From contig NZ_LGKP01000022.1 of the NCBI RefSeq assembly GCF_001306135.1, positions 434,001 to 498,000 on the forward strand: a stretch of 64,000 bases of DNA. Reading direction: 5' to 3'. Shown here piece after piece: positions 12,046 through 44,168 of this stretch; positions within the stretch are counted from its first letter, which is position 1; each line of letters starts with the position of its first letter. A model generated the notes under the pieces. The model was not told the DNA's origin, ran no database searches, and was given only the letters and a program-made list of their open reading frames with translations. The translations under genes and the position numbers were made by a program. The stretch comes from Herpetosiphon geysericola. Lineage in GTDB: Bacteria; Chloroflexota; Chloroflexia; Chloroflexales; Herpetosiphonaceae.

Positions 12046-12137
12046 CCATTCTGCTAGTATCTAAATGCTGGGTAGAGAGGCTGGAATTCAGATTTCAGCC
12101 TCTTGTTCACTTTCTTTCCTATGGAAGGTGTCATCAA

Positions 12138-12872
12138 ATGGATGTAACAGCTCTGGCTTTAGAAGCATATCTCCATATCCTTGAAGCATCAGTTAATGAT
12201 CAATCTATTGATACTCATCAATTACTAGCCTTCGTTAAATCATCGGTATTGAATGCTATTCGCACTGGAATGTTAGATGTTGCGAATAAAACTGATCGAG
12301 AACTCCAAAGAGCAGTATTTTCTTACATTGCAGAATGGGGTAAAGAACCTGTCTTAACGACGCATCTTAACCTCAATTACACCAATGAATTATTGGATGA
12401 AGCTCTAAATGCTGTAGAACGTGAAAATGGACTTCTTGCCATCATTTTGTATGCAACGTGGTGCGAACATTGGATTAATGGCATTATTACAAGCATTGCT
12501 CAACGACAAGGTATGACTGGAGTGCAGATAGAGAAATTATTCAAGGGGAATAGATCATTATTTTTGAAATATACCAAAGTGCTCGATGGCCTTGGCCTGC
12601 CCCGTTTTGATGAGTCAATTCGCGAGGCATTACTTAAGCTTGCGAAACAACGAAATGATTTTGTTCATTACAAGTGGGAATCGTTGATTGTCGATGATTT
12701 AGCTTCGCTCAAGTGGTTTGAGGAAATTGACCAGTTACTTGCTTCTATGCCAGCCAATATCGAAGCCCTCAAAGACTATGAAAATCACCATATATATTTT
12801 GGAGTTATTCCCTATATTGATAGGCTTTTTGAACGGCTTGCTGAGCAATTAGCCCGACAAACACAAAAATAA
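12138..12872 (+). CDS. HEPN-like protein, possible RNase toxin/defence
   Basis: 244 residues from ATG 12138 with GGAAGG upstream; the longer frame from 12024 overlaps the previous gene. It is mostly helical. Residues about 175-185 read KQRNDFVHYKW, matching the HEPN motif R-x4-6-H with the usual polar residue after Arg. Earlier helices (YATWCEHWINGIITSIAQRQ) fit a HEPN bundle. HEPN proteins with this motif are often ribonucleases in toxin-antitoxin, abortive infection and CRISPR contexts. No antitoxin is beside it; it lies alone between two secreted-protein genes. The fold call is from motif only. Confidence 0.5.
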   Translation: MDVTALALEAYLHILEASVNDQSIDTHQLLAFVKSSVLNAIRTGMLDVANKTDRELQRAVFSYIAEWGKEPVLTTHLNLNYTNELLDEALNAVERENGLLAIILYATWCEHWINGIITSIAQRQGMTGVQIEKLFKGNRSLFLKYTKVLDGLGLPRFDESIREALLKLAKQRNDFVHYKWESLIVDDLASLKWFEEIDQLLASMPANIEALKDYENHHIYFGVIPYIDRLFERLAEQLARQTQK

Positions 12873-12951
12873 ACTTCTTTACTTCACATCCAAAAAATGC
12901 ATGAAGAGTGCATCTAAATAATATAACATCAGTCTGTTAAGGAGTCTTTGC

Positions 12952-13860
12952 ATGCGTCGGCTCATCTTCCTTGTATGCTCTCTGAGTCTCATCGTCCTGC
13001 TTCTTCCACAAGCAGCCAATGCACACAACCTTTGCTTTCCACAATCAGCTTTTTGCCTTGATGATCCATTCTCGGATTATTGGGAAGCCAATGGTGGTCT
13101 CGCAGTGTTTGGCTATCCCATCAGCGCAGCTGCAGGCGAAGCCAATCCTGATACTGGGATGGTCTATCAAACGCAATGGGTTGAGCGCAATCGTTTTGAG
13201 CGCCATCCCGAAAATGCCGGTACTCCTTATGAAGTGCTTTTAGGATTGCTTGGAAAAGAGCGATTGACACAACTCGGTCGCACTACTAATGCCCGCGAAG
13301 CTGGACCAATCCCAGGGTGTTTGTGGTTTGAGGAGACCGGGCATAATGTCTGTGATCAAGCTCCAAACCGAGGATTCAAAAGCTACTGGCAATCGCATGG
13401 ATTAACTATACCTGGGCTTGATTTATACGCGCGATCGTTACAACTTTTTGGACTCCCGCTTACTAGTGTAGCCACTGAAACGAATGCCAATGGCGATACC
13501 GTTCAAACCCAGTGGTTCGAGCGTGCCCGATTTGAATGGCATCCCAATAATCCTGATGAGTTTAAGGTATTGCTGGGGTTACTTGGGAGCGAAGTGCGAA
13601 GCGTAGCCCAGCCAACCGCAATCCCAATTCCGCAACCAACGGGGATTCCAATGCCGACGGCAACGGCTCTTCCAACGGCAACACCGACACTTACACCAAC
13701 ATCTGTCCCACGATGCGATCCTTCCTATCCTGATGTCTGTATTGCGCCACCACCGCCTGATCTCGATTGTGGCGATATCCCATATCGTCGATTTAGAGTT
13801 TTGGCACCCGATCCCCATCGTTTTGATCGTGATAAAGATGGTATTGGCTGCGAAAGCTAA
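12952..13860 (+). CDS. Secreted protein with FGYP repeats and Excalibur domain
   Basis: 302 residues. Signal peptide MRRLIFLVCSLSLIVLLLPQ with cleavage before HNLCF. The first ~215 residues closely match the gene at 10855 (same YW-NGG-VFGYP modules), so the two are tandem duplicates. A Pro/Thr linker (PTATALPTATPTLTPTSVPR) leads to a C-terminal Excalibur calcium-binding domain: DLDCGDIPYRRF and DRDKDGIGCES. Such domains bind Ca at the cell surface. RBS AAGGAG upstream. Confidence 0.8.
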   Translation: MRRLIFLVCSLSLIVLLLPQAANAHNLCFPQSAFCLDDPFSDYWEANGGLAVFGYPISAAAGEANPDTGMVYQTQWVERNRFERHPENAGTPYEVLLGLLGKERLTQLGRTTNAREAGPIPGCLWFEETGHNVCDQAPNRGFKSYWQSHGLTIPGLDLYARSLQLFGLPLTSVATETNANGDTVQTQWFERARFEWHPNNPDEFKVLLGLLGSEVRSVAQPTAIPIPQPTGIPMPTATALPTATPTLTPTSVPRCDPSYPDVCIAPPPPDLDCGDIPYRRFRVLAPDPHRFDRDKDGIGCES

Positions 13861-13866
13861 TAAAAT

Positions 13867-13910
13867 AGGTTGGCAGCATCACCTCCTCACTTAGATAGCG
13901 CTGCCGACCT
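13867..13910 (+). terminator. Stem-loop after the secreted-protein gene
   Basis: AGGTTGGCAGC (13867-13877) and GCTGCCGACCT (13900-13910) pair with one wobble around a 22-base loop. No T run follows, so it may be a terminator of weaker type or a transcript-stabilising hairpin. Confidence 0.4.
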
Positions 13911-14059
13911 ATACCTGAATAACACAAATGTTTGTCTTGTAGCGTTCGTTAGGAGGTGGTAGACTTCAAGGCACTTCGTTTGTTAGGCGTGTAGAGAGCG
14001 CTTATCGCAGTGTGTGTAGGAACTAGGGTAACCGCATTCTTGTTTAGAAGGGAATGACC

Positions 14060-15169
14060 ATGGATCTGATTGACCGTCTGCGCGATCTGGCCACCCGTGT
14101 TACCAAGCAGCTGGAGTATATTCAAACGGAAGAGGCAACCAAAAATGCCTTAGTTATGCCCTTCTTAGCTTCGCTGGGCTACGATGTTTTCAATCCTCTC
14201 GAAGTAACCCCCGAATTGAATGCCGATATTGGCTTGAAAAAAGGCGAAAAAGTTGATTATGCGATCCTGCGTGATGGCAAGCCAGTGATGCTCCTCGAAT
14301 GCAAGCACCATAATGCCGATTTAGGCAAGGCCCATGCTTCCCAGTTGTATCGCTATTTCAGCGTAACCGAAGCCCGCTTTGGGATTCTCACCAATGGCCT
14401 CTCCTACTGGTTTTACACCGATCTCGAAGCGCCCAACAAAATGGATACCAAGCCCTTCTTTGAATTCAACTTGCTTGATATTCGCGAACAAGATGTTGAC
14501 GAACTGAAGAAATTTACCAAAGCCACATTCGATGTAGCTGGCATTGTAACGACTGCCAGCGAGCTGAAATATACTCGTGAAATCAAGCGGATCATGGGCG
14601 AACAACTCACCAATCCCTCGGAAGAATTTATCAAGTTCTTTGCGACCCAAGTATACAGTGGTCGGATGACCGCCAACATGCGCGAGCAATTTGGCCAGAC
14701 CACCCGCCGAGCACTACGCAACTTCATCAACGACCAGGTGAATGATCGGCTGAAAACCGCCTTGGGCACCGATACACGGATCACGATCGAGGAAACCCCA
14801 ACAGCTCAAGCTGCAACCGATGAGCCAGTGACCACCGCTGCCGACAAAGAAGCAACTGGTGTGCTGACCACGATGGAAGAGCTGGAAGCCTTCTACATCG
14901 TGCGCTCGATCTTGCGCGAAACGATTGATGCTAAACGCATCGTTATGCGCGATAAACAGAGCTACTGTGGAATTCTGCTCGATGACAACAATCGTAAGCC
15001 CATCTGCCGGCTCTGGTTGAACTCAACCACTACAAAATCGATCAGCCTCTTCGATAACCAACGCAAAGAAGAAAAAGTCCAAATCAAAGATATTGATGAT
15101 ATTTATAAATTTGCCGAGCGACTTAAGGCTACTATTGCCGCATATACTAATTCCAAGACTGAAGCTTAG
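14060..15169 (+). CDS. HsdR N-terminal-type restriction nuclease domain protein
   Basis: 369 residues from ATG 14060, with AGAAGGGA six bases upstream. The N-terminal ~130 residues follow the HsdR_N pattern: EATKNALVMPFLASLGYDVF, then VDYAILRDGKPVMLLECKHH (PD-(D/E)xK residues D, E, K) and YRYFSVTEARFGILTNG. No helicase domain follows, so it is a stand-alone family member common in bacteria and phages, not a full type I subunit. The C-terminal ~100 residues are a distinct domain (LEAFYIVRSILRETIDAKRI). No methylase or specificity subunit is adjacent. Confidence 0.75.
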   Translation: MDLIDRLRDLATRVTKQLEYIQTEEATKNALVMPFLASLGYDVFNPLEVTPELNADIGLKKGEKVDYAILRDGKPVMLLECKHHNADLGKAHASQLYRYFSVTEARFGILTNGLSYWFYTDLEAPNKMDTKPFFEFNLLDIREQDVDELKKFTKATFDVAGIVTTASELKYTREIKRIMGEQLTNPSEEFIKFFATQVYSGRMTANMREQFGQTTRRALRNFINDQVNDRLKTALGTDTRITIEETPTAQAATDEPVTTAADKEATGVLTTMEELEAFYIVRSILRETIDAKRIVMRDKQSYCGILLDDNNRKPICRLWLNSTTTKSISLFDNQRKEEKVQIKDIDDIYKFAERLKATIAAYTNSKTEA

Positions 15170-15220
15170 ACAAGCTTATCTTAAACCAGGTGCAGTCAAT
15201 AGGCGCGATAGGAGTTTGTT

Positions 15221-15688
15221 GTGGATAGTTTTCCGTGTTTTGTTGTTATTGGCGTGGCCGCATTTATTATTGTCATGATTTTGCGTGGCGCGGGGGAGCG
15301 TGAACGAAATAAGCAAAAAGCACATGCTGAATACCAACAGGCACTTAATGCACTTCGGGCTAATCCCCTTGACCCCAATTTAAAGCAACATACCCTTATG
15401 CTTGGGCGGGCCTACTCGAATCTTACTCGGGACAGTAAAGGTGTGACGGTTTACGACGAAATGGCGATTATGAACGATATCAATGCCGCAACTGCTAGTG
15501 CCTATATGCAAGCCCAACAGCATGCACCAGTGGCTTATCACCCGCCACAATCATCAATTACTAGTACGCTTGCCAGCGTTCCAACCATAGCCGAGCGCTT
15601 GCGCAAACTGGATGACCTCAAAGCCCAAGGTTTAGTGAGCGATGACGAGTATACAGCCCGTCGCACAAGGATTCTTGATGAAGTATAA
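15221..15688 (+). CDS. Membrane-anchored SHOCT-domain protein, GTG start
   Basis: 155 residues from GTG 15221 with AGGAG upstream. One membrane segment (residues 6-22, CFVVIGVAAFIIVMIL) is followed by a charged coil and a flexible middle. The C-terminal ~30 residues are a SHOCT motif (ERLRKLDDLKAQGLVSDDEY). SHOCT is an oligomerisation motif found at protein ends; its role here is unknown. Confidence 0.7.
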   Translation: MDSFPCFVVIGVAAFIIVMILRGAGERERNKQKAHAEYQQALNALRANPLDPNLKQHTLMLGRAYSNLTRDSKGVTVYDEMAIMNDINAATASAYMQAQQHAPVAYHPPQSSITSTLASVPTIAERLRKLDDLKAQGLVSDDEYTARRTRILDEV

Positions 15689-15735
15689 GTTAGACTTTCG
15701 CATCCAAGCCAAGTATAGCCAGTAAGGAGTATCCT

Positions 15736-15993
15736 ATGTCTGAACCGATTAAGTATCCATTCGAACATGAGGGTAAAGAGTATGAAGTGTGGGTGCATAG
15801 GGATACCACTGGCCGCTCACTGCATGTCTATAAAGATGGCAAACGGATTGAGCAAGCCCACTACATCTTTAACACCCATGAAGAGCTTCAAGATATAGCT
15901 ATGCATAAAGGGCCTGCGAGCGCAGAAGTTTCGGCTGGTGAACTGATTAGGATATTCAAAGAGCACTTTCATCGCTACAACCTTGACCAATAA
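15736..15993 (+). CDS. Small hypothetical protein
   Basis: 85 residues with a good AAGGAG site. It has a beta-rich N-terminus (YPFEHEGKEYEVWVHRDTTG) and helical C-terminus (SAGELIRIFKEHFHRY). No recognised family or partner. Confidence 0.65.
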   Translation: MSEPIKYPFEHEGKEYEVWVHRDTTGRSLHVYKDGKRIEQAHYIFNTHEELQDIAMHKGPASAEVSAGELIRIFKEHFHRYNLDQ

Positions 15994-16411
15994 CCCTCAA
16001 TCGCTTGAGTAAAGAAAGTCGGTTTGTTTTTGCCATCCTTGGTCAGGGTGGCTTTTTTCTTGCTCTCTTTATCATCAAACGAGGTCACGCCAGCGTCGTA
16101 TCCATAGGGAATTTCATTGTGGATAGCCTAGTGGATAGCCTGTGGACTATCTGTGAGAAATCTCCATCCTTTGACCCTTGTTTTCGGTGGGAAAACGCAC
16201 TACCATAAAGGCCCGCCCGCAAACAAGACTAATGGGTATTGACGAAACATGTCCTTTTTAGTACTCTAGTACTATACGCTTGCCCAGAATAGTACTTGAT
16301 AATTTGGGGTATAATAGCGTAAACCTATCCGTGACAAGTGTCACAAACTTGCACATCTGTGCGGATATCATGTTGATAAAATATCTTGTAGTGATTGATA
16401 AGGACGATATT

Positions 16412-17164
16412 GTGGGAGCACAGTATGAAAAACCACCTATTATTGAGGTAGTGGCAGAGGTTCACTTTGCTACTACTTCGTGGAATGAAACTATGCCTGA
16501 GCGATTTGCTAGACGAATCAAAGGTAGTTTTACAGAATTGCTCCCACCAGGAGATGGTGAATCTGATTTAGATACTTCTATATGGGAAGGGCGTAAGGTT
16601 TTTAAACATTATACCTATCATGTTTTAGTACAAATAGGTGAAGGTGTTCTTGTAGTCAATAATATTGACAAATATATCGCTTGGGATAATTTATTACCTG
16701 TTATCAAGGAAGTGTATACAGCGTATAAAGCCTTGGATAAAGAGGTGAAAATACAACATATTATCCTTCGGTATATCAATCAAATAGATATACCTCATCA
16801 AGGCAGCCAAATAAGTTTAGAGAAGTATTTCAATCTTTACCCATACTTTAAGCTTCCTTCTTATGAAATCTATGTTGGCTTTATAGTCGGCTTACAGTTT
16901 CCATTTACTGGTGGGAATATAAAAGTCGAAATGCGAACAACCAACAGTGAAGCACCAGAAGTTACATCCGTCATCTTAGACATGGAATGTTTTATTGGGA
17001 AGCTTAAGGACTCAACAGCACGAACGGCTTCAAGTAAATTCAATCTAGCTCACCAGCAGGTCGAAAAACTATTTGAAGCAATTATCAATGACAACACACG
17101 GCAATTATTCATTGAAACTCGTAGTGAGGGAGTTAGCGATGATTTGCATGACAACTCCATATAA
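16412..17164 (+). CDS. TIGR04255-family protein
   Basis: 250 residues from GTG 16412, with AAGGA upstream, which places YEKPPIIEVVAEVHF at the start as in the TIGR04255 family. The family is sporadic in bacteria and of unknown biochemical role. The rest is beta-rich with FRIKGSFTELL-like and LRYINQIDIP segments. It is the first gene of a three-gene set with overlapping or touching ends. A TATAAT at 16310-16315 may be its -10 box. GC is lower than in the flanking genes, hinting at transfer. Confidence 0.75.
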   Translation: MGAQYEKPPIIEVVAEVHFATTSWNETMPERFARRIKGSFTELLPPGDGESDLDTSIWEGRKVFKHYTYHVLVQIGEGVLVVNNIDKYIAWDNLLPVIKEVYTAYKALDKEVKIQHIILRYINQIDIPHQGSQISLEKYFNLYPYFKLPSYEIYVGFIVGLQFPFTGGNIKVEMRTTNSEAPEVTSVILDMECFIGKLKDSTARTASSKFNLAHQQVEKLFEAIINDNTRQLFIETRSEGVSDDLHDNSI

Positions 17165-17567
17165 GCGCATAAATTCTTCAAGCGCAAACCTTTTACCTAG
17201 GTCTGTAGCTGGAAAACCTGAAAGCAGGTCTGCCACATCTTTTATCGAAAAGAAGGTAACTTCTCTGAGAGAAGTCTATGAGTTTGGTTCAGCGGTAGAT
17301 AAAATTGAGAAATTTGTACGCGCCTACAGCCACCTAGTGGATTTTCTACTTGATGCATACAAGCATGTTCAAGCCAAGTTCCCAGAGGCAACTATTAAGT
17401 TAACAGTCGATGTTGAAAGTAGTGCAAAAACCCATGAGGCCTTCATTCGTGTTACTCCACACATCCCATTCCCTGAAGCGCGACAGCGGCTCGATGAATT
17501 CGATGATGCGTGGTGGATTAAAAACCTTGATAGGGGAGATGGCCGTATTACGCTTGTGGTGCGCTAA
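17139..17567 (+). CDS. Unknown protein, middle gene of HEPN cassette
   Basis: 142 residues from ATG 17139 with GAGGGAG six bases upstream. It overlaps the TIGR04255 gene by 26 bases and ends right before the next start. A helical middle (DKIEKFVRAYSHLVDFLLDA) is followed by beta-like IKLTVDVESSAKTHEAFIRV and a short acidic end DDAWWIKNLDRGDGRI. I do not recognise the family. Its place suggests that it joins or neutralises the neighbouring HEPN protein. Confidence 0.7.
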   Translation: MICMTTPYKRINSSSANLLPRSVAGKPESRSATSFIEKKVTSLREVYEFGSAVDKIEKFVRAYSHLVDFLLDAYKHVQAKFPEATIKLTVDVESSAKTHEAFIRVTPHIPFPEARQRLDEFDDAWWIKNLDRGDGRITLVVR

Positions 17568-17975
17568 ATGTTTGAATGGGATCACTATCTAGTTATTGCT
17601 AATAAACTTGTGGAGATAGGTGATACATCTCCCAAAATATCAGATGCCGCATATCGCTCTGCTATTAGCAGAGCGTATTACGCGGCCTATAATAAGGCTA
17701 AACTAATTTACAATAGAGAAACTAAATTACCAAGTGAAGCCGATTCCTATGATGGTCATGGATTAGTCTGGATGCATTTCAAGAGAGATAAAGCGGATAT
17801 TAGAAAAAAGCTTGGAGAACTAGGGGTTCGGTTACGAGAATTCCGAAATCTCGTTGATTATCAAGTTGTTGTTACACAAGAAGAGGTTCGTCACCACCAC
17901 TTTCCCTTATCAATAGCTGCGGTATATGCAGTTAAGGATGCTCAAAAGATTGTAGATGATTTGGGAAGATTATAG
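17568..17975 (+). CDS. HEPN protein (UPF0332-like)
   Basis: 135 residues starting directly after the previous stop. The features SAISRAYYAAYNKAKLIY, then HGLVWMHF and LREFRNLVDYQ, match the HEPN/UPF0332 pattern (helix with AYYAA, conserved H, R--xDY end). The strict R-x4-6-H RNase motif is replaced by R-x4-Y, so nuclease action is uncertain. HEPN proteins of this kind occur with nucleotidyltransferases or other partners in toxin-antitoxin and defence loci; here the partners differ. Confidence 0.7.
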   Translation: MFEWDHYLVIANKLVEIGDTSPKISDAAYRSAISRAYYAAYNKAKLIYNRETKLPSEADSYDGHGLVWMHFKRDKADIRKKLGELGVRLREFRNLVDYQVVVTQEEVRHHHFPLSIAAVYAVKDAQKIVDDLGRL

Positions 17976-18065
17976 CTTCCTCATCCAACTTCCCATGATC
18001 GCATGCCCCGCATAGCACATCTGTGTGTTAATGTGGGATATGTGGGATAAATTGCCGCATTTTCA

Positions 18066-18093
18066 TTGACAAGTAGTACATGCGTGCTATAAT
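18066..18093 (+). promoter_or_regulatory. Strong sigma70 promoter at the start of the phage module
   Basis: TTGACA (18066-18071), 16 bases, TATAAT (18088-18093). It lies about 35 bases before the first phage-module gene and is the best promoter seen in this segment. Confidence 0.75.
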
Positions 18094-18127
18094 TTTCGCA
18101 ATCGTATCGACGCAACCAAATGGGGTC

Positions 18128-18394
18128 ATGATGACAGCACGATTTCATGGCAAAGTTATTTTTGTTTTGGAATCGCCAGGCAACTGGCCTGAAGTTGCGC
18201 GGATAGTCACCATCAAACGCAACAACAACGAATCAGCGCTTTCTTTTCTAAAACGCTGCCAGCGCAATGGTGAAACGTTCAAACACCAACGATTTGCTTC
18301 AACCAAGCAATCCCTAACGGCGACGATGGAAGTTGACTACACAGACGACCAGCCAACGCTGGCGAAAATCATCCTCGCGCCAACCACCAATTAA
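18128..18394 (+). CDS. Small hypothetical protein at the start of the phage module
   Basis: 88 residues from ATG 18128 (18131 also possible). The N-terminal part is beta-rich (FHGKVIFVLESPGN, ARIVTIKRN) and the middle basic. The gene has its own strong promoter upstream and a hairpin terminator downstream, so it is a single-gene unit. The family is unknown. Confidence 0.55.
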   Translation: MMTARFHGKVIFVLESPGNWPEVARIVTIKRNNNESALSFLKRCQRNGETFKHQRFASTKQSLTATMEVDYTDDQPTLAKIILAPTTN

Positions 18395-18396
18395 TG

Positions 18397-18415
18397 AAGA
18401 GCGAAGCTCGCTCTT
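18397..18415 (+). terminator. Stem-loop terminator
   Basis: AAGAGCGA and TCGCTCTT pair around AGC, immediately after the gene at 18128-18394. Only a short T run is present (CTTTAT). Confidence 0.6.
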
Positions 18416-18489
18416 TATGTGACTAGCAGACTTTTACGCTAGCCATGGCGACCTAGGCAACTAGGCGCACGACTGATGCGATACCCGCA

Positions 18490-18542
18490 AGGTCGATACT
18501 CCCCGAATGCATTTGGGGCGTGTTGATCCTGCGGGTTTTTGT
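18490..18542 (+). terminator. Structured terminator/attenuator before phage late genes
   Basis: CCCGCAAGG (18490s) and CCTGCGGG pair, followed by TTTTTG (18535-18540). CTCCCCGAA/TTTGGGG forms an inner hairpin. It sits 20 bases before the first late gene, so it could act as an antitermination or attenuation point. Confidence 0.5.
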
Positions 18543-18562
18543 TGTTTCAAGGATTTTTTTCT

Positions 18563-19063
18563 ATGGCTGAGGCTGAGTCAATCATCAAATTAGTGAATAG
18601 TAACGGGTTGCTCAGCGTGATCATCGTGCTGCTCGTGTTCTTTGGGAAGGCTGCAATGCCATCCATTACAAAAATGCTTGATCACATTGCAGAGTATTTC
18701 AATCCAACCCGTGCTGATGCGAAGGCAAAGCAGCAGAAAGAGGATGACGATCGCGAAGCTCGCTTACGCAAAGAAGAGCTCGATCTGTTGACGCATGCCT
18801 ATGATGGCGAACTGCTCGATGCCTACAAGAAAAATGCCGAGGTTAATGTCCAAGTCATTATGACGATGCAGGCTATTCAGACCAAGCTCCTCGATAGTGA
18901 TTTGCTGACCCAAGCGCAACTGTTACGCATTAGCCAAGGCGTTGCTGACAACCAACTGGGCGTTACCGACATCAAGACCGATGTTGCCCGCATTTTCACC
19001 GTGCTGCAACAAGAGCAGCCGAGCCGGACCCAAACGAAGCCCAACCAACCATTACCCATGTAG
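18563..19063 (+). CDS. Membrane-anchored coiled-coil phage protein (lysis region)
   Basis: 166 residues from ATG 18563, AAGGA upstream. One membrane segment at about residues 15-35 (LLSVIIVLLVFFGKAAM) is followed by a long charged coiled coil (AKAKQQKEDDDREARLRKEE). It precedes the holin and endolysin and may help in lysis, perhaps as a second holin or spanin-like part. This is context inference. Confidence 0.6.
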   Translation: MAEAESIIKLVNSNGLLSVIIVLLVFFGKAAMPSITKMLDHIAEYFNPTRADAKAKQQKEDDDREARLRKEELDLLTHAYDGELLDAYKKNAEVNVQVIMTMQAIQTKLLDSDLLTQAQLLRISQGVADNQLGVTDIKTDVARIFTVLQQEQPSRTQTKPNQPLPM

Positions 19064-19076
19064 GAGGAAGCACCCC

Positions 19077-19472
19077 ATGCTCGCAACCGTCAATTCCATC
19101 GCGAACACCCTTGTTCCCATCTTACTCTCGATCATTTTTGGCATCATCGCCAGCTCAGGCCCAGCACTGATTAAGCTTGGTACAGCCTTTATTAACTCCA
19201 AATTGACCGAGCATCAGCAAGCCGTTCTCTACGCCGCCGTGAAGGTCGGCGAACGGGCCGCAGCTGCGCAAGGCTTTACCCCTGAGAACGCATGGGAATC
19301 GGCCAAAGACGTTGCGGTCAAAGCAGCCATCGAGTATGCCAAGCGGTTTGGCATCTCCCTCGACCCAAAAACGCTCACCCCGTTGATTGAGGCCGAAGCG
19401 GCCAAGCAAGAGCGCCTTCGGCCAATGGTGATTGATAGTTCGTTCGTGCCAGTTGTGACCGACGGAGTGTAG
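19077..19472 (+). CDS. Phage holin, LLH-like
   Basis: 131 residues from ATG 19077 with AGGAGGAAG upstream. An N-terminal membrane helix (NTLVPILLSIIFGIIASSGP) is followed by an amphipathic region with the pattern AVLYAAVKVGERAAAAQGFT, then KAAIEYAKRFGI and a final LIEAEAAK helix. This matches superfamily-6 holins (Holin_LLH) in layout. It lies directly before the endolysin. Confidence 0.7.
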   Translation: MLATVNSIANTLVPILLSIIFGIIASSGPALIKLGTAFINSKLTEHQQAVLYAAVKVGERAAAAQGFTPENAWESAKDVAVKAAIEYAKRFGISLDPKTLTPLIEAEAAKQERLRPMVIDSSFVPVVTDGV

Positions 19473-19475
19473 CCA

Positions 19476-20231
19476 ATGGGTATCCTTGATTTGCCAGTTG
19501 TTGATATTCGGCATCTGCTGCTGCGTCGTCCATCGCGGTTTCTCGTCACGCGGTTGCTGAAGCTTATTACTGGGAGCGTTGATCACTACAACGGCCCCGA
19601 AACCGCGATTGCAGCATCGATCGATGCAGAGATTCGGCATCTTCAGGCGATTGCGCAATATCACGTTGGCAAAATCTGGGGGTACGCCAATGGGATCGCA
19701 ATTTATGGCCACGGCATTATGTATCACTACGCCGTGGGCGCAACGGGCACGATTTATTGGCTGCGCAACCTGAGCGACATTCTTTGGCACTGTGGTCATG
19801 GCATCGGCAACAACACAACCGTCGCCGTCCACACGCCGATTGGGGGTCAGCAACACCCAACCGATAAGCAGTGGAATGCAAAGGTCATGCTTTTTGATGC
19901 ATTGGCCGAGGATCGTGGCTTCAATGCAAAGTCGAACACAAAAGGGCATATGGAGTGGGGGCAGAGCGAATGCCCCGGCCCAGTGCTTATGCCAATGCTT
20001 GATGCATGGCGCAAGGAGCCAGTCATCAAGCGCTATCGCATTAAGTACAACGATGCGAATTGTCGGCAAGGCCCAGGGCTGAACTTTCCTATAGCCGCCA
20101 CGTTCCAAGCAGGTCATGAATTCGATGGCAAGCGCATCTTGGGTCAATCCATTAATGGCAATCCATGGTGGATTCATCGCGATACCGATGGCATCGGAAT
20201 GTTTCACGACTCGTTGTGTGAGGAGGTCTAA
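19476..20231 (+). CDS. Endolysin, N-acetylmuramoyl-L-alanine amidase with SH3-like tail
   Basis: 251 residues. An amidase_2/PGRP-like domain has zinc-ligand candidates in VDHYNGPETA (H), VAVHTPIGG (H) and GQSECPGP (C, with GHMEWG before). It cleaves the bond between MurNAc and L-Ala in peptidoglycan. The C-terminal ~65 residues (YRIKYNDANCRQGPGLNFPI, NPWWIHRDTDGIG) resemble a bacterial SH3 wall-binding domain. It starts 4 bases after the holin stop. The lysis genes lie before the terminase genes. Confidence 0.85.
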   Translation: MGILDLPVVDIRHLLLRRPSRFLVTRLLKLITGSVDHYNGPETAIAASIDAEIRHLQAIAQYHVGKIWGYANGIAIYGHGIMYHYAVGATGTIYWLRNLSDILWHCGHGIGNNTTVAVHTPIGGQQHPTDKQWNAKVMLFDALAEDRGFNAKSNTKGHMEWGQSECPGPVLMPMLDAWRKEPVIKRYRIKYNDANCRQGPGLNFPIAATFQAGHEFDGKRILGQSINGNPWWIHRDTDGIGMFHDSLCEEV

Positions 20232-20432
20232 TTGGACGTTTTCATTGGTATCACGTTGATTGTGCTGTTGATCGTTCTTGTGGCGCGATCCCTTGCTCGC
20301 TTGCATGTCGATGTCAACAACCTGCTGGCTGGCACCCATCATTTGATTGATCGCCCACCAGCGTGGCGCACGGGCAAACCCGACCGCTCCCACCGTCGCC
20401 GGAACGCACGCAAAACGACGTCACGCCCATAA
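20232..20432 (+). CDS. Small membrane protein in lysis cassette, TTG start
   Basis: 66 residues from TTG 20232, which follows the endolysin stop directly; GAGGAGG lies six bases upstream. One membrane helix (FIGITLIVLLIVLVARSLAR) and a basic tail. Its place suggests a lysis accessory or spanin role, but no lipobox is present. Confidence 0.55.
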   Translation: MDVFIGITLIVLLIVLVARSLARLHVDVNNLLAGTHHLIDRPPAWRTGKPDRSHRRRNARKTTSRP

Positions 20433-20493
20433 GGCGTGGAACGCAATCTTATTCCTATCCGCCGCGCCAGCGGCGACATCACTGAAGTAGGCC

Positions 20494-21063
20494 ATGATGA
20501 CCAATGAAGTACACGACAACCTCAAATATGTAACAGATAAGCCCTTAACCAAAAAGGAGCAGGCGTTTGTGTATGAGTATGTCAAAGACTTCAACGGTAC
20601 GAAGGCCGCTCAGCGAGCAGGCTATTCGGAGGACAATCCTCGCGCTGCATCCGTGACCGCAAGCCGCATGCTAACAAAAGCTAACATCATGCGCGCGATA
20701 CGAGCCTTAGTGTCCGAACGCGCCATGAGCGCCGATGAGGTACTTGATCGCTTAGCCCGCATTGCACGCGGCACGATCGAGCCATTCATCACTAAGGCCA
20801 ATGCGATCAATCTGAAAACTGTGGAGGCGCAGGTGGACATCGGGCTAGTGCGCAGTTTTCAGGAAGGAACGTCCAAAGTCGGTGCGAAGCTGGAGTTGCA
20901 CGATGCACTGAAGGCACTGGAGCTGATTGGCAAGGCCAATGGCGCACTGACCAATATCAAAGATTCGTTGTTGGCCAACCTTGATGTGAGCAAGCTCACA
21001 CCAAACCAAATTCGGGCTATTGCCGCAGGCGAGGATATCATCGATGTCTTACTTAATCCCTAA
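20494..21063 (+). CDS. Phage terminase small subunit
   Basis: 189 residues of the terminase_2 type. LTKKEQAFVYEYVKDFNGTK, then AQRAGYSEDNPRAASVTASR, form the DNA-binding N-terminal domain. The C-terminal helices (ELHDALKALELIGKANGAL) are typical of this family. It recognises phage DNA for packaging together with the large subunit, whose start overlaps this gene by 20 bases. Confidence 0.85.
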   Translation: MMTNEVHDNLKYVTDKPLTKKEQAFVYEYVKDFNGTKAAQRAGYSEDNPRAASVTASRMLTKANIMRAIRALVSERAMSADEVLDRLARIARGTIEPFITKANAINLKTVEAQVDIGLVRSFQEGTSKVGAKLELHDALKALELIGKANGALTNIKDSLLANLDVSKLTPNQIRAIAAGEDIIDVLLNP

Positions 21064-22768
21064 TACCAATCTGCGCATTAAGCCGCCACTGACCCTGCAA
21101 GTGCGTGCGAAGGCCATCCTTGAACTGCGCGAACGCGGCTTGGAGGATGTATCCCCGTTTGAGGAGTATCAGTTTAATCCTGAGGGCTACACCAAGGACA
21201 AGCTGGGCTGGCAGCCATGGCGCGGTACGGGCATCGACGAGCCTGGGCAGGTTGAGATTTTCGAGGCCTATACCCATGCGTTACGCCAACAGTTTGAACG
21301 AGAAAAGTACGAGAACGGCGAAGCCTACGATGAAACCGTGTGGCAGCCCGGGCAGATCATCAAAAACCGGATACGGATCGAAGCAGGCCACGGGGTAGGC
21401 AAGACCAAAGGCATGAGCGCCTTAGTCAGCCATTTCTTAGATTGCTTTCGGCCCAGCATTATCTACACCTTTGCTCCGAGCTGGGATCAAGTGAAAAAGC
21501 TGCTCTGGAAGGAAATCAAAACCGACCGCAAAAAGGCCAAGCTGCCCGGTCGGATCCTGGAGACCTGTGAAGTCATCATCGACGACAACCATTTTGCGAG
21601 TGGAAAGTCAACCGATGATAGCAATGGCAAGGGTGGCGAGCGGGTGCAAGGGCAGCACGGCAAGTTTTTGATGTTTGTGCTCGACGAGGCCGAAGGCATT
21701 CCCAAGTTTGTCTATGAGGCTATCGATTCGATGACGAGTGGCGGGATTGTGATTGTGCTCATGATTGCCAATCCCAAGACCCGCAATAGTCATTTCTATC
21801 ACCAAGCGAAGTACAGCAACGTGCTCTCGATGCGCATGAGTTGCTTACAGCATCCGAATGTGGTGGCTGATAAAACCGTGGTGCCAGGGGCCGTGAAACG
21901 CAGTTATGTCACGGACATGATCGAAAAGCACTGCCACGAAGTGGATGGGCCAAACGCGGACTTATTCCACTTCCAAGTGCCATGGGATGCTACAACGTGG
22001 TATCAGCCAAATAATGAATTCATGTTCCGCGTGCTTGGTATTCCACCCGAGAACGCCAGTATCAATACCTTCATTCCGGTTGGTCGGTTCGAGGCAGCGG
22101 TCAAGCGTGGCAAACAGCCCATGGCCACTGGAACTGTTGACCAAACCAAAGCGCGGATCGGGGTGGACTGTGCGCGCTGGGGTGATGATACCGGAGCGGT
22201 GTATTTGCGGCACAACGGGCGGATTAATAAGGTTGCGCGCATCGAGCAGCAAAACACCTTTGTCTATGTTGAGCACATTAAATTCGCTGCCTTGAAGCTG
22301 CCTGAGGATGTAACCAGTCTGCATATTCGCGTTGATGGCACCGGTGGCTTTGGGGCTGGGATTATCGATCGCTTATTAGTTGATCCCGAATTGCGGCGAC
22401 GCTTTCGCGACTATCAGGTGATCGAGGTCCTGTTTGGGGCGCTGCCCTCGCCGCATAACAGCGACGAGTACGCCAACTGCGTGACCGAGATGTACGCTGA
22501 AACCGCAGAGGTCTTGAAAGATATTGCCATTCTTCAGCCCGCCGAGCAGCTCGAAATTGATTTGACCGATCGTCAGTATGGCTATCAGTCGAAGGGGCAG
22601 TTAGAGCTGAAACGACTTGAACCCAAGGATGATTTTCGCAAACGCCACAAGCATAGTCCTGACGATGGCGATGGCCTCGTCTTATGTGGCGCTCCTGACT
22701 TTTGCTTTGATCACCTGCTAATAAGCAATGACGATGAAGCAATGCCTGGCTCATGGGGGAGCTATTAA
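21044..22768 (+). CDS. Phage terminase large subunit
   Basis: 574 residues from ATG 21044. The ATPase part has Walker A GHGVGKT (residues 115-121) and Walker B FLMFVLDE (about 208-215). The C-terminal nuclease starts near residue 370 with RIGVDCARWGDD, the first acidic site of the RNaseH-like terminase nuclease; TSLHIRVDGTGGFG follows. It drives ATP-dependent DNA packaging into the procapsid via the portal. Full length and intact. Confidence 0.9.
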   Translation: MSYLIPNTNLRIKPPLTLQVRAKAILELRERGLEDVSPFEEYQFNPEGYTKDKLGWQPWRGTGIDEPGQVEIFEAYTHALRQQFEREKYENGEAYDETVWQPGQIIKNRIRIEAGHGVGKTKGMSALVSHFLDCFRPSIIYTFAPSWDQVKKLLWKEIKTDRKKAKLPGRILETCEVIIDDNHFASGKSTDDSNGKGGERVQGQHGKFLMFVLDEAEGIPKFVYEAIDSMTSGGIVIVLMIANPKTRNSHFYHQAKYSNVLSMRMSCLQHPNVVADKTVVPGAVKRSYVTDMIEKHCHEVDGPNADLFHFQVPWDATTWYQPNNEFMFRVLGIPPENASINTFIPVGRFEAAVKRGKQPMATGTVDQTKARIGVDCARWGDDTGAVYLRHNGRINKVARIEQQNTFVYVEHIKFAALKLPEDVTSLHIRVDGTGGFGAGIIDRLLVDPELRRRFRDYQVIEVLFGALPSPHNSDEYANCVTEMYAETAEVLKDIAILQPAEQLEIDLTDRQYGYQSKGQLELKRLEPKDDFRKRHKHSPDDGDGLVLCGAPDFCFDHLLISNDDEAMPGSWGSY

Positions 22769-24333
22769 TGCCAACGGCCTTTGACAATCTTTCCGTGGAA
22801 TCAGCAAAGAAGCGGCTGCCTGTTACGCCCGAAAGCGTCAAGAGCGCCGTGCTCTTTCGCGATGGCGATCACTGGCAAGGTGGCGCAGCGTGGACTGGGC
22901 CAACACCCGCCGCGGGCGATAAAAATGCCTCTGAGGTTATGACCCGTATCCAACGCGAGTTTGTCTCCAGCAACGTGATTGCCGAGGTGGTTGAACGCCA
23001 CATGAACGGTGCAATTGGCCGTGAGCCACAGTGGGGCTATGCCGTCCGTCGCCCACTGCTAGATGAGGAACAACCAACCGATCCCGAGCAAGGCTTAATC
23101 GACGAGGCCGAAGCGGCCATGACGAGCTGGTGGGATCAGCGCAATGTGTTAAGCATTTTGCAGGAATCAATTGCCACTGCCGTGGTGTATGGACGCGCTG
23201 TCCTGCGCTTGTTTATTCCCCCTGCTGCGGTCGAAGGCGGGGTGATTCAACGGCAGCCAACCTTGGCCGATGCCTTGAATCTCATTTGGCTCGATGTGCT
23301 GGCCCCAGAGCAAGCGGGTGTCAGCCGCGACAAAGCCACCATGCAAGCCTGTGGCGTGTATGTCTACACCAACGACGACAAAACAGAAGTTGCGGAAGTG
23401 ACCTTTCTTGATGGTCTTGATACGGTGGTGCGCACCCTCGAAGGGGAGGCCGTGACGGGCGAAACGCGGCTGCCGCTGATGGGTCACTTACTGATGCTCG
23501 AAATTACCTGCAAGCCCATCATCAGCCTGTCGATGCAGCAGATGCAAAAGGCCTTAAACATGACCTTGACCATGCTCCAACACAACATCGTCATCAGCGG
23601 CTTTGTCGAACGGGTGTTGTCGAATGCCCAAATGCCCTACGACGAGGTGGACGATCCGGCGAATCCCAATCAAAAGATGCGCGTGTATAAGCCCTATGAC
23701 ATTGGCCCCGGCAAAACGACCAATCTCGTGGGTGTACCAATTCGGGATGAGCGCACGAAGGCGATCACGGGCTATACCAATCCATCAGTGCAGTGGCGCG
23801 ACCCATCGCCCGTCACAACCTTTGTTGACACCGATGCCGCCATTTATCGCCGCATGCTCAACGAGTGTAAGCAGCTGCATGCGCTATTGAGTGGGGATGC
23901 CGTCGCCAGTGGCGAAAGTCGCAAACAGGCATTGCTCGATTTCGCGATGGCGCTTGGGCCAACGGCCACCGCCATCAAGCAGCTGGTGCGCTGGCTGCTC
24001 GAAGCGACCTTAGCCTTAGCCGCACACTTTGCTGGCCGACCGAACGCCTTTGATAGCCTGCGCGCGGATGTGACCCCACGCCTGTGGCTGGGCAGCTTAA
24101 GCAGCGAAGAGCGTAACTTTTTATTAGCAGCCTATGAAAAAGGGGCTATCAGCCACGACCTGTTCTTAAGCTTGATCGATGTTGAGGATGTGGATGCCGA
24201 GAAAGCCCGGATTGCGGCGGAGCAGGAAGCTAAGCAGATTCAGCAAACCCGCACGCTGGCAGCCGCGCTCGCAACCAACCAAGCGCGGCTCGATAGTGGT
24301 GCTGCCAGCACCGGCTTGGAGCAACCCGAATGA
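22768..24333 (+). CDS. Phage portal protein
   Basis: 521 residues from ATG 22768, which overlaps the terminase stop (TAATG) and has GGGGGAG upstream. Typical siphovirus portal features: an N-terminal SSNVIAEVVERHMNGAIGRE segment, the central beta-rich stem and crown, and a C-terminal helical part ending in Gln/Ala-rich sequence. Position after TerL and before MuF supports it. The portal forms the DNA-entry dodecamer. Confidence 0.85.
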   Translation: MPTAFDNLSVESAKKRLPVTPESVKSAVLFRDGDHWQGGAAWTGPTPAAGDKNASEVMTRIQREFVSSNVIAEVVERHMNGAIGREPQWGYAVRRPLLDEEQPTDPEQGLIDEAEAAMTSWWDQRNVLSILQESIATAVVYGRAVLRLFIPPAAVEGGVIQRQPTLADALNLIWLDVLAPEQAGVSRDKATMQACGVYVYTNDDKTEVAEVTFLDGLDTVVRTLEGEAVTGETRLPLMGHLLMLEITCKPIISLSMQQMQKALNMTLTMLQHNIVISGFVERVLSNAQMPYDEVDDPANPNQKMRVYKPYDIGPGKTTNLVGVPIRDERTKAITGYTNPSVQWRDPSPVTTFVDTDAAIYRRMLNECKQLHALLSGDAVASGESRKQALLDFAMALGPTATAIKQLVRWLLEATLALAAHFAGRPNAFDSLRADVTPRLWLGSLSSEERNFLLAAYEKGAISHDLFLSLIDVEDVDAEKARIAAEQEAKQIQQTRTLAAALATNQARLDSGAASTGLEQPE

Positions 24334-25325
24334 TCGACGCGGTTGCCATTGCCAATCAATTTCGTGCTGAGCTGCTCGCAATGAATGCGAGCGCCATGAA
24401 CGATCTGACGAAACGCTGGCGCACAGTGGAAGCCGCCTTGAAGGCTGAAATTGAGGCCTTAGCATTTCAAATGAGTCAGGCCAAAGCTGACGGGCAAACG
24501 GTCAGCGAATCGCAGCTGTATGCAAACGATCGCTACCAAGCGTTGTTGATCCAACTCCAGCGGGAATTAGCGAAATATAACGCTGATGCAGCGGCGCTGA
24601 TTCAAGCCCAGCAACTGAGTTTTGCCAGTATGGGAGCCGAGCAGGCGACCGCGTGGTTGCGCTACTCCGGCGCGATTCAAGGGTCATTCAATCAGTTGGG
24701 CAGCGGCGCATTTGAAAACATTGTTGCTTTAGCCCGCGCTGGCAATCCCTTGGATGTATTACTGAACAACGCCTATCCGGCAACGGCCCAAGCTATCACC
24801 GATGAACTGCTGAAGGGGTTGGCGTTGGGAAAGAATCCACGCACAACCGCGCGGAATATGGTCAACGAAGGGCTAACAACCAGTCTTAATCATGCCTTGC
24901 TAGTGACGCGGGATCAGTCGGTTCGGGCATCACGGTTGGCCACGTTGCAGCAGTATCAAACGAGTGGATTAGTCGTGGCTTATAAGCGAGTTGCGGCACG
25001 CCAACGGCGCACCTGTCTGGCCTGTTTGGCACTCGACGGCACGGTGTACCCAACCAATGTGATGATGCCGCTGCACCCGCAATGCCGATGTGCTGTACTC
25101 CCAATTTTAAGGAACCGCGAGCCGCTGGCGATGCCAACAGGTAAGCAATGGTTTCTGGAGCAGAGCGCAGACACGCAACGGAAGATGCTTGGCCCAGGTC
25201 GGTATGGGCTATGGGAACGTGGCGCGTTTCAATTCGAGGATTTAGCGACGGTGCACAGCGGTGGGGTTTGGGGCGCAAATGCCCAAGTTACCACGGTGGC
25301 CGCACTGCAAAGGATAGGACGATGA
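24330..25325 (+). CDS. Phage minor head protein, MuF-like
   Basis: 331 residues, four-base overlap with the portal. Helical N-terminus; C-terminal MuF/SPP1 gp7-type domain with RTTARNMVNEGL, ARRLATLQQYQTSG-like and a Cys/His cluster CLACLALDGTVYP...HPQCRC. Such proteins are minor virion parts ejected with or attached to DNA. Confidence 0.8.
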   Translation: MIDAVAIANQFRAELLAMNASAMNDLTKRWRTVEAALKAEIEALAFQMSQAKADGQTVSESQLYANDRYQALLIQLQRELAKYNADAAALIQAQQLSFASMGAEQATAWLRYSGAIQGSFNQLGSGAFENIVALARAGNPLDVLLNNAYPATAQAITDELLKGLALGKNPRTTARNMVNEGLTTSLNHALLVTRDQSVRASRLATLQQYQTSGLVVAYKRVAARQRRTCLACLALDGTVYPTNVMMPLHPQCRCAVLPILRNREPLAMPTGKQWFLEQSADTQRKMLGPGRYGLWERGAFQFEDLATVHSGGVWGANAQVTTVAALQRIGR

Positions 25326-25600
25326 TGGAACCTAATGATCTCATGCAGGCACTACGTGTAGCGATTCCAACAGAACAGGTGATTCATGAATCACTGCGTG
25401 AATCGTTTCAAAAATTGAGCCACAGCCTTGAAGGGTTTGTGGTACTCAATCCACCACCGCAACTATTCGATGATTTCATGCATCCACGCATCCATCCATC
25501 CCGCGTTGGTGATCCACCAGCGCAAGGGTGTGACGCGGCACCAAATCGCAAACCAAAACCATGGGAATCGGTTCGCTGGCAGCCACGCCGGAAATACTAA
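25322..25600 (+). CDS. Small hypothetical head-module protein
   Basis: 92 residues from ATG 25322 or 25325, overlapping the MuF stop. An N-terminal helix (ALRVAIPTEQVIHESLRESF) and a Pro/His/Arg-rich C-terminus. No recognised family. The overlap and direction support it as a gene. Confidence 0.55.
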   Translation: MMEPNDLMQALRVAIPTEQVIHESLRESFQKLSHSLEGFVVLNPPPQLFDDFMHPRIHPSRVGDPPAQGCDAAPNRKPKPWESVRWQPRRKY

Positions 25601-25631
25601 AAGCAGTCTAGTCATACAGGAGTAAATCGCA

Positions 25632-26363
25632 ATGGTTCGCTTTTTTCGCTCAGTCAAACTTTTTACCGCTGATAACGGTGGCGGCGGCTCTGGCGGCGCT
25701 AGTGGTAATCCAGCACCAGCAACCCCGCCTGCCAATCCACCGGCGAACCCGCCCGCTAGTGGCAGTGGTAATCAACCCGATATTGCGGGGCAAATTGCCA
25801 ATCTCGTTGCCCGCCAAGGTGGCCCAGATGCAGCGCTCATGCTGTTGATGCAGGAGAACTATCAATACCGCGATCAGAATCGCCAGCTGCGCGAGCGCAC
25901 GCCGGAGGGTTCTGTAGTACTCAGCGGCGATGATGTACAGCGCTGGCGGGATTATCAGGCACTTGGGCAGCTCGATGAATTACGCATCCGTTTGACCGAG
26001 CGCGAGCAAGCCCAAACCGAGCTCGCCACGTTGCGCACCCAAGCGACCATTCGCGGCGTTGCCGAAGCGATGCAGTGGAAACCAAGTGTCTTAGAGCGCT
26101 TGGCAGGCAATGTCACCTTTGTCACCAAAACCGAGGGCGATACAACCACGATCAGCGTCAAGGACGGCGACGTGGAAACCTCACTCCAAGCCTATGCCGA
26201 CAAGCACTGGAGTGAATTCATGCCCGCCCTCACGACTGATACAGCCCCTGCACGGAGGGGAACGAACTTTGTCCAGCAAGGTGCTGGCAATGTCAAAAAG
26301 ACCGATGTTATGACAACCCATAACCAAAAGATGGGTTATAGCGTCCCAAAGCGAGGTAATTAA
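25632..26363 (+). CDS. Phage capsid scaffolding-like protein
   Basis: 243 residues. A Gly/Pro-rich start is followed by a helical, Gln/Arg/Glu-rich body (YQYRDQNRQLRERTPEGS, ELRIRLTEREQAQTELATLR). It is in the usual place between MuF and capsid, and the composition is that of phage scaffolding proteins. The assignment is by position and composition. Confidence 0.65.
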   Translation: MVRFFRSVKLFTADNGGGGSGGASGNPAPATPPANPPANPPASGSGNQPDIAGQIANLVARQGGPDAALMLLMQENYQYRDQNRQLRERTPEGSVVLSGDDVQRWRDYQALGQLDELRIRLTEREQAQTELATLRTQATIRGVAEAMQWKPSVLERLAGNVTFVTKTEGDTTTISVKDGDVETSLQAYADKHWSEFMPALTTDTAPARRGTNFVQQGAGNVKKTDVMTTHNQKMGYSVPKRGN

Positions 26364-26983
26364 TGGCCGACGTAAACACCTATGCAAACCAACTGACCAG
26401 CCCAGCATGGGCGGGCGACTTTCTCAATCGTGAACACCTGATGCCTGGCGGTGCAAAGGTCGATGCAAACCAGTTCATGGCAACCGATGGCGCTGTGGTC
26501 ACATTGACCGCCAACGCCTTAGTCAATGCTGTGAGCATCGCGGTTTCAGCCTTGGCGAACCCAATCCCGAGCGGCACGCAGCTGCGCTTTGGTGCTGGCA
26601 AGTATGCCTACACGACTGCCAATGCAACGGCGGGCGCAGTGACCATTGCGGTCGAAGCGTTGCCGGTGGCGCTGACCAACGGCGATAAGGCCACCTATAA
26701 GGGCACAGGCATGAAGCCCGTCACCATCGTGAGCGGTACGTTGCTTGGCCGCACGTGGGCCGAGCGCGATGCAGGCACGGCCTTTGGCCCCGCTGCTGAT
26801 ATCGATGAAGATATTTTCTTCTTGGCTCAAGACATTACCGATGCCAGCAAAAACAATGATGCTGACTTGTATCGCCATGGTGGCATCGTGAAAGAAAACT
26901 TTGTACCAGGCTGGGCGAATCTGAGTAGCACGTTGAAGGCGTTTGTGCGCAGCCGTTACCAATGCACCGTTGGCAAAGCCTAA
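26363..26983 (+). CDS. Phage head decoration-like protein
   Basis: 206 residues, start overlapping the previous stop (TAATG). It is beta-rich and Ala/Thr-rich (VTLTANALVNAVSIAVSALA, GAVTIAVEALPVALTNGD). It sits between scaffold and major capsid, where head decoration or stabilising proteins are usual. The fold was not confirmed. Confidence 0.55.
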   Translation: MADVNTYANQLTSPAWAGDFLNREHLMPGGAKVDANQFMATDGAVVTLTANALVNAVSIAVSALANPIPSGTQLRFGAGKYAYTTANATAGAVTIAVEALPVALTNGDKATYKGTGMKPVTIVSGTLLGRTWAERDAGTAFGPAADIDEDIFFLAQDITDASKNNDADLYRHGGIVKENFVPGWANLSSTLKAFVRSRYQCTVGKA

Positions 26984-27036
26984 GCAGGGCGAAGGCAACC
27001 TAGTTTATTCATCAATCTGTTTAGGAGTTTCGTTCG

Positions 27037-28122: not shown

Positions 28123-28171
28123 GTAGAGCGGAGAAGGTTTACTAATTCAGTTCTTTCAAAGGAGCAATCTC

Positions 28172-28594: not shown

Positions 28595-28596
28595 GT

Positions 28597-41913: not shown

Positions 41914-42043
41914 GATGCGCCCAGCTGGCGCAAGCCCCGCTAAAACCACAAACGGCTCGCAAAACGGAGCCGCTTGTGGGAGAGAAGAGAGAGGAGAAGG
42001 TTTGGCCTAAGTTTAGCAAAAATAGGCTAAATGTCAATTCCAA

Positions 42044-44019: not shown

Positions 44020-44031
44020 ATAGACTTGTCA

Positions 44032-44062: not shown

Positions 44063-44168
44063 CTCTACTTATATTAGATGCAAACGATCTAGATTTTTCC
44101 AATTGTTCTCCAGTATTTAAGCAAACTCAAGGTTAAGTTAAGGTTATAGTAAGAGTTTAGTGAAATTT

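What the first reader, a model, noticed from the sequence alone, without database searches (positions are those of the whole stretch)
16412..17975. TIGR04255 / unknown / HEPN three-gene cassette, candidate undescribed defence or toxin system
Three genes overlap or touch: a TIGR04255 protein (function unknown), an unknown 142-residue protein and a UPF0332-like HEPN. The HEPN end is R-x4-Y and not R-x4-H. GC is lower than around them. The set is inserted right before a phage late module and after an HsdR-N-like nuclease. HEPN pairs are usually with a nucleotidyltransferase; this partner set is not one I know.
Basis: partly seen in the sequence, partly recalled or inferred. Interest (0 to 1): 0.7.

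Follow-up and report, generated by a model that had tools for sequence, protein, structure and literature searches.

The report
Prophage-borne three-gene HEPN toxin cassette
A Chloroflexota prophage carries, in a slot where a sister prophage has a different gene set, three packed genes (an uncharacterised TIGR04255 protein, a small antitoxin-like protein and a predicted RNA-cutting HEPN toxin), and TIGR04255 turns out to be the fixed first gene of many such cassettes whose other two genes are swapped for other effector pairs.

Summary
TIGR04255 (16412-17164), a 142-aa protein (17139-17567) and a HEPN protein (17568-17975) overlap or abut and are low in GC. The order recurs, divergently, in eight other sampled Chloroflexota genomes (two copies broken, one with an unrelated middle gene) and on a Thermus plasmid. 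In a same-genus strain with a closely related prophage the slot holds other cargo: a kinase-containing set. R-x4-Y is not a lost active site: H64, R93, Y37 and Y38 are invariant in 21 of 21 homologues, matching the alternative HEPN site proposed for AF0298/AbiV and shown by mutation in retron-Kva2.

New: TIGR04255, absent from the searched literature, is the constant first gene of modular cassettes. In 33 of 49 loci gene 3 falls into four homologous clusters; singletons include a zeta toxin. On the TIGR04255 tree the types cluster yet were exchanged repeatedly. Middle proteins with TIGR04255 upstream carry longer N-terminal extensions than most solo HEPN partners, as chaperone-addicted antitoxins do.

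Best reading: a tripartite toxin-antitoxin or abortive-infection module, analogous to TAC/CmdTAC with a non-SecB third subunit. Toxicity, neutralisation, chaperone role and phage defence are all untested.

The parts
15172..18021 (.). Variable prophage cargo slot that holds the cassette; replaced by different cargo in the related prophage of G034
   Evidence: Flanks align at 86-91% (window 12124-15171 and 18022-28739), this stretch does not
16260..16296 (.). Three AGTACT palindromes (16260, 16268, 16291) upstream of gene 1, with TATAAT at 16310-16315: possible operator and -10 box
   Evidence: AGTACTNNAGTACT occurs once in 64 kb, 0 of 100 shuffles; 3 of 6 AGTACT in the window. Not conserved in other cassettes; function inferred
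16412..17164 (+). Gene 1: TIGR04255 family protein, 250 aa, GTG start
   Evidence: NCBIfam TIGR04255 7.4e-24, over cut-off; AlphaFold2 pLDDT 85.5, pTM 0.84
17139..17567 (+). Gene 2: 142-aa middle protein, probable neutraliser; low-confidence N-terminal ~29 residues then a helix-strand core
   Evidence: No family hit; recurs before HEPN; AlphaFold2 pLDDT 83.8
17568..17975 (+). Gene 3: HEPN protein, 135 aa, predicted RNase with H64/R93 site
   Evidence: Homologue over Pfam HEPN cut-off; profile hits solved HEPNs; residues invariant in 21/21

Best explanation
A tripartite toxin-antitoxin-like (probably abortive-infection or element-maintenance) cassette carried as prophage cargo. Shown: a conserved three-gene unit, intact alternative HEPN active-site residues, exchangeable genes 2+3 behind a constant TIGR04255, and replacement of the slot's content in a related prophage. 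Inferred: HEPN is a homodimeric RNase using H64 and R93 of each subunit, with tyrosines 37-38 at the substrate, by analogy with retron-Kva2; gene 2 binds and neutralises it; gene 2's N-terminal extension makes it depend on, or report to, the TIGR04255 protein, which keeps it folded or held in the complex. When TIGR04255 is titrated or gene 2 is lost (incoming phage, loss of the element), HEPN is freed, cuts RNA and stops growth. The logic is that of TAC/CmdTAC, with TIGR04255 in the place of the SecB-like chaperone.
For: Order and tight packing conserved while proteins diverge to about 30% identity. Active-site residues invariant in 21/21, matching the alternative site in PMC3710099 and the mutated site in retron-Kva2, PMC13405049. 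Gene 2 of the commonest other type resembles Xre antitoxins (NF049845 9.7e-5, HTH_3), a gene 2 of the window's own family carries an HTH_3 domain (2e-13), and one gene 3 is a zeta toxin: gene 2 looks antitoxin-like, gene 3 toxin-like. TIGR04255 co-inherited with but repeatedly re-paired to gene pairs. Gene 2 N-extension 39-99 aa with TIGR04255 against 9-52 aa solo (p 0.0008). Chaperone addiction works through an antitoxin extension absent from chaperone-independent antitoxins (PMC5105189). Cargo-slot swap.
Against: No toxicity, binding or phage data. TIGR04255 shows no detected SecB similarity and its fold matches are not decisive. The extension correlation falls to p 0.06 when three proteins with another N-terminal domain or upstream ORF are included, and the sequences are not independent. 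Middle+HEPN pairs often occur without TIGR04255, so it is not essential in general. Chromosomal copies lack a clear defence neighbourhood.
Confidence: 0.5

Rival explanations
1. Sensor-adaptor-effector defence complex: TIGR04255 is the phage-sensing subunit, gene 2 an adaptor tuned to each effector, HEPN a latent effector switched on in the complex; there is no classical antitoxin.
For: Constant TIGR04255 with exchangeable effectors; prophage cargo slot; type D pairs match the defence candidate PDC-M32; the retron-Kva2 HEPN is held latent in a complex (PMC13405049).
Against: HEPN often occurs with gene 2 alone, which fits a neutraliser better than an adaptor; antitoxin-like HTH domains in gene 2.
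Confidence: 0.25
2. An ordinary two-gene toxin-antitoxin pair (gene 2 + HEPN); TIGR04255 is an independent co-transcribed gene, for example a regulator, without a mechanistic part in the pair.
For: About ten genomes and Gloeothece plasmids have the pair without TIGR04255.
Against: TIGR04255 is followed by a packed pair in about 40 of 49 loci and re-paired with several types; gene 2 is longer at the N-terminus when TIGR04255 is present.
Confidence: 0.13
3. Gene 2 is a degenerate MNT nucleotidyltransferase and the pair is a decayed HEPN/MNT type VII system that modifies HEPN.
For: HEPN partners are usually MNT; some weak fold matches of gene 2 are nucleotidyltransferases at Z about 5.
Against: No G-S...D-x-D pattern in the gene-2 alignment; profile comparison with MNT proteins of related genomes gives probability 0.1%; KH and ring-building domains match equally or better.
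Confidence: 0.05
4. Passenger or decaying phage genes without present function.
For: Two relatives (G198, G335) are broken by stops or frameshifts.
Against: In the window all three frames are open, and seven catalytic-region residues are invariant over phyla.
Confidence: 0.07

Closest known systems
TAC / CmdTAC toxin-antitoxin-chaperone systems (PMC5105189, PMC11618068)
   Same: Three genes; third protein constant while antitoxin/toxin families differ; antitoxin extension goes with the third gene; CmdTAC is anti-phage.
   Different: No SecB similarity found for TIGR04255; here the extension is N-terminal and the constant gene is first; dependence is not shown.
HEPN/MNT type VII toxin-antitoxin (PMC7641770, PMC11586414)
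   Same: HEPN protein beside a small partner encoded upstream.
   Different: Partner shows no MNT motif or profile similarity; HEPN is of the alternative-site sub-type; third gene present.
Type IX retron HEPN (retron-Kva2, PMC13405049) and AF0298/AbiV-type HEPN (PMC3710099)
   Same: Upstream His plus the motif Arg instead of R-x4-H; paired tyrosines in helix 2.
   Different: No reverse transcriptase or winged-helix gene in the cassette; sequence similarity to retron HEPN is weak (0.0036).
PDC-M32 (PADLOC phage-defence candidate)
   Same: Genes 2+3 of type D TIGR04255 cassettes match PDC-M32A and PDC-M32B; PDC-M32 is also reported in Sinorhizobium prophages (PMC12429752).
   Different: The window's genes 2+3 are unrelated to it; the TIGR04255 proteins match no PDC-M32 model.

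Membership tests
TIGR04255 | Score above NCBIfam's curated cut-off over the full model | tested here: met
   84.9 bits against 30, model 1-251 of 252
HEPN superfamily | Sequence-profile relationship to HEPN domains | tested here: met
   Window protein no Pfam hit, but aligned homologue over PF05168 cut-off and family profile hits solved HEPNs 5e-7
HEPN superfamily | Canonical Rx4-6H motif | tested here: not met
   R-x4-Y; but H64 and R93 of the described alternative site invariant in 21/21
HEPN superfamily | RNase activity | not testable with these tools
   Needs an assay
HEPN/MNT type VII TA | Partner is an MNT nucleotidyltransferase | tested here: not met
   No motif, hhalign probability 0.1%, no Pfam hit
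TAC (toxin-antitoxin-chaperone) | Third gene encodes a SecB-like chaperone | tested here: inconclusive
   No sequence hit; SecB not listed among fold matches, which does not exclude it
TAC (toxin-antitoxin-chaperone) | Antitoxin extension present only with the chaperone | tested here: inconclusive
   39-99 aa with TIGR04255, 9-52 aa solo, but three exceptions of 92-116 aa
TAC (toxin-antitoxin-chaperone) | Antitoxin function depends on the third protein | not testable with these tools
   Needs expression tests
PDC-M32 candidate defence system | Matches to PDC-M32A and PDC-M32B models | tested here: not met
   Window genes give no PADLOC hit; only the type D cassettes match

The most novel reading that the evidence does not exclude
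TIGR04255 is a previously unrecognised, non-SecB chaperone or sensor subunit that acts as a plug-in platform: the same protein family has been coupled repeatedly to at least four gene-pair types (HEPN, two 'CD[IL]' groups, PDC-M32-like) and occasionally to zeta, possibly PIN-like or retropepsin-like effectors, forming a broad family of tripartite toxin or anti-phage modules on prophages, plasmids and chromosomes.
Probability: 0.4. Interest if true: 0.82.

Novelty: new variant of a known kind. Interest (0 to 1): 0.64.

Why it matters
It gives a first testable role to a family (TIGR04255) of unknown function, for which no paper was found in the full-text library, and would add a non-SecB class to tripartite toxin-antitoxin systems. 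If the constant protein senses phage or guards the antitoxin, one mechanism would explain many uncharacterised effector pairs at once, including the PADLOC candidate PDC-M32 and two unnamed gene-3 groups.

Tried and rejected
MNT-like gene 2: motif and profile tests negative. PDB hit 9hnh for TIGR04255 (1.2e-5): two weak repeats of one short segment in a small repetitive protein; taken as spurious. TIGR04255 as guanidino kinase: best row Z 9.0 over 186 residues, rmsd 3.8, but only Y88, R120 and F221 are invariant in 29 sequences; not claimed. SecB was not among the listed fold matches of TIGR04255. PDC-M32A's N-terminal 250 residues as a hidden TIGR04255 domain: no profile similarity. AGTACT operator as a conserved cassette signal: not conserved, 2 of 45 against a background of 4.8%. 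Defence-island context: few of 48 neighbours matched PADLOC, mostly kinase and methylase models; no matched control was run. Joint fold of gene 2 + HEPN read-through: MAFFT aligned the two parts onto each other, so it was dropped. Viral-contig searches found only the window's own provirus. Tree-wide scans beyond Chloroflexota were limited to plasmids, phages and one genome-contig scan.

Full report
WHAT IS THERE. Three plus-strand genes, 16412-17975. Gene 1 is a TIGR04255 protein (84.9 bits), gene 2 a 142-residue protein without family hits, gene 3 a HEPN protein recognised through its homologues. Gene 2 starts 26 bp inside gene 1 behind GAGGGAG; gene 3's ATG follows gene 2's stop directly. 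GC3 is 0.28-0.39 against 0.56-0.65 in the neighbouring phage genes. The window lies in a 6.14-Mb genome; the trio is inside a 52.9-kb provirus in IMG/VR.

CARGO SLOT. A same-genus genome (G034) carries a prophage with a 96% identical large terminase. Window 12124-15171, 18022-18879 and 19040-28739 align with it at 86-91%, but 15172-18021, which holds the trio, does not. At the same place G034 has 5.3 kb with an SH3 protein and a low-GC overlapping set: 222 aa, a Ser/Thr kinase, 398 aa; the kinase matches PD-T4-6 and other kinase models in PADLOC. So the trio is exchangeable prophage cargo. In a Pantoea prophage-like region a TIGR04255 cassette also sits between lysis genes and terminase.

RECURRENCE. 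A search of 400 Chloroflexota genomes with gene 2 found remote relatives (best ones 25-31% identity). The HEPN profile gave a cluster of strong hits. TIGR04255 with a HEPN third gene occurs in nine of the sampled genomes, the window's included (two are broken copies, G198 and G335; in G242 gene 2 is unrelated), and on a Thermus brockianus plasmid near a VapC, a methylase and cas6. Middle+HEPN without TIGR04255 occurs in about ten further genomes and on Gloeothece plasmids. The genome-contig scan named Ktedonobacteraceae, other Chloroflexi and KSB1 bacteria. An Enterococcus faecium plasmid has an analogous three-gene set ending in a related HEPN (1.4e-22) with an unrelated first gene.

HEPN ACTIVE SITE. 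R35, Y37, Y38, A39, H64, R93 and Y98 are invariant in 21 of 21 sequences; N94 and D97 nearly so. The 2013 HEPN survey noted that AF0298- and AbiV-type HEPNs lack the motif histidine but have a second conserved upstream H that could form an alternative site (PMC3710099). In retron-Kva2 such a site (H64, R122, with Y40-42) was seen by cryo-EM and its mutation abolished T5 defence (PMC13405049, a preprint). The HEPN profile hits that protein weakly (0.0036). The R-x4-Y ending is therefore the expected form of this sub-type. RNase activity remains inferred.

TIGR04255 AS THE CONSTANT GENE. 36 of 400 genomes have TIGR04255. In 49 loci (42 from these genomes, the window's among them counted once more, and six from plasmids) the next two ORFs were taken and clustered. 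In about 40 of 49 they are tightly packed. Gene 3 forms four clusters: CD[IL]-long 12, HEPN 9, PDC-M32B-like 7, CD[IL]-short 5 (33 in all). Gene 2 forms largely matching clusters: HTH type 12, the window's type 8, M32A-like 7. Singletons include a zeta toxin (PF06414 3e-12), a possible PIN protein (0.075, below cut-off) and a retropepsin-like protein (1e-4, just below cut-off). ORF choice was mechanical, so singletons are less sure than clusters. On a TIGR04255 tree of 46 rows the types are clustered (14 changes, shuffled mean 27.2, 0 of 200 as low), yet well-supported branches force at least two origins for HEPN, four for M32-like and four for CD[IL]-short. That is co-inheritance with repeated exchange. 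It was a quick tree with long branches (the window's row is one), and near relatives inflate clustering.

GENE 2. AlphaFold2 gives a low-confidence N-terminus and a small helix-strand core; fold matches are weak and mixed (best Z 6.2 over 66 residues, rmsd 2.4). Extension length before the core: 39-99 residues in nine proteins with TIGR04255, 9-52 (upper bounds) in nine solo proteins (p 0.0008); three with an HTH domain or another upstream ORF have 92-116, and one is the C-terminus of a 908-residue protein; including those three p is 0.06. Setting them apart was decided after seeing them, the Thermus value (76) uses an in-frame ATG upstream of the annotated start, and the sequences are not independent. 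In TAC systems the chaperone binds an antitoxin extension absent from chaperone-independent antitoxins; grafted to unrelated proteins it also works at the N-terminus (PMC5105189). The parallel is suggestive, not a test of function.

GENE 1. The AlphaFold2 model (pLDDT 85.5, pTM 0.84) looks like two tandem strand-helix-sheet-helix units (my reading of the secondary structure). The best structural matches are guanidino kinase catalytic domains (Z 9.0, 186 residues, rmsd 3.8) with TBP at 7.3, a level the tool describes as common for unrelated folds; no function is drawn from it.

MECHANISM. Most likely a tripartite toxin-antitoxin or abortive-infection module: HEPN the toxin, gene 2 the neutraliser, TIGR04255 the protein that stabilises gene 2 or senses a trigger. 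Sub-steps, my estimates: functional unit 0.95; HEPN is an RNase toxin 0.8; gene 2 neutralises it 0.65; TIGR04255 acts as chaperone-like or sensor subunit 0.4-0.5; phage exclusion is a main role 0.5.

KNOWN OR NEW. No paper in the library names TIGR04255 (most subscription papers and most preprints are not held). Type D cassettes contain relatives of the PADLOC candidate PDC-M32 pair, so part of the wider group has been flagged computationally, without TIGR04255. I rate it a new variant of a known kind.

Noticed in passing
L137:12374-15085 (G034:C25), minus strand: Three overlapping low-GC genes (222 aa, Ser/Thr kinase 289 aa, 398 aa) occupy the cargo slot of the related prophage; the kinase matches PD-T4-6 models (6e-44), the other two have no convincing family hit: a candidate kinase-based defence set.
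   Followed up: partly
window 15221-15688: 155-aa protein just upstream of the cassette with SHOCT and Effector-associated domain 11 (EAD11) Pfam matches, both over cut-off; it lies in the non-aligned slot.
   Followed up: no
window 42044-44945: Second very low-GC island (28% in 42001-43000 and 44001-45000) between two DNA methyltransferase genes: a 458-aa protein that begins like a PIN-type protein and a 261-aa sigma-factor-like protein (by eye).
   Followed up: no
window 18066-18093: Perfect TTGACA-16-TATAAT promoter with TG before the second hexamer, right downstream of the cassette and at the start of the conserved phage segment.
   Followed up: no
L066, L067, L069, L070, L072, L073, L076, L091, L096, L138, L142; L082, L084, L090, L140, L147: Two unnamed gene-3 groups with a [ST]Q-x-CD[IL] motif, the commonest effectors behind TIGR04255; no convincing Pfam hit in members tested.
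   Followed up: partly
L156:2875-5601: 908-aa protein whose C-terminus is a gene-2 core, directly before a HEPN gene; the large part was not identified.
   Followed up: no
L063:3174-4369 (Enterococcus faecium plasmid): Analogous trio: 135-aa first protein, 133-aa second protein with a hydrophobic/Ser-rich N-terminus, HEPN of the same sub-type.
   Followed up: partly
L023:2773-3288 (KSB1 bacterium): One ORF joins the N-terminal third of TIGR04255 to a full gene-2 core, with no HEPN found after it: a deletion product or a natural fusion.
   Followed up: no
L034/L012 (G006): Gene 2 with an N-terminal HTH_3 domain (2e-13) before HEPN, without TIGR04255.
   Followed up: partly
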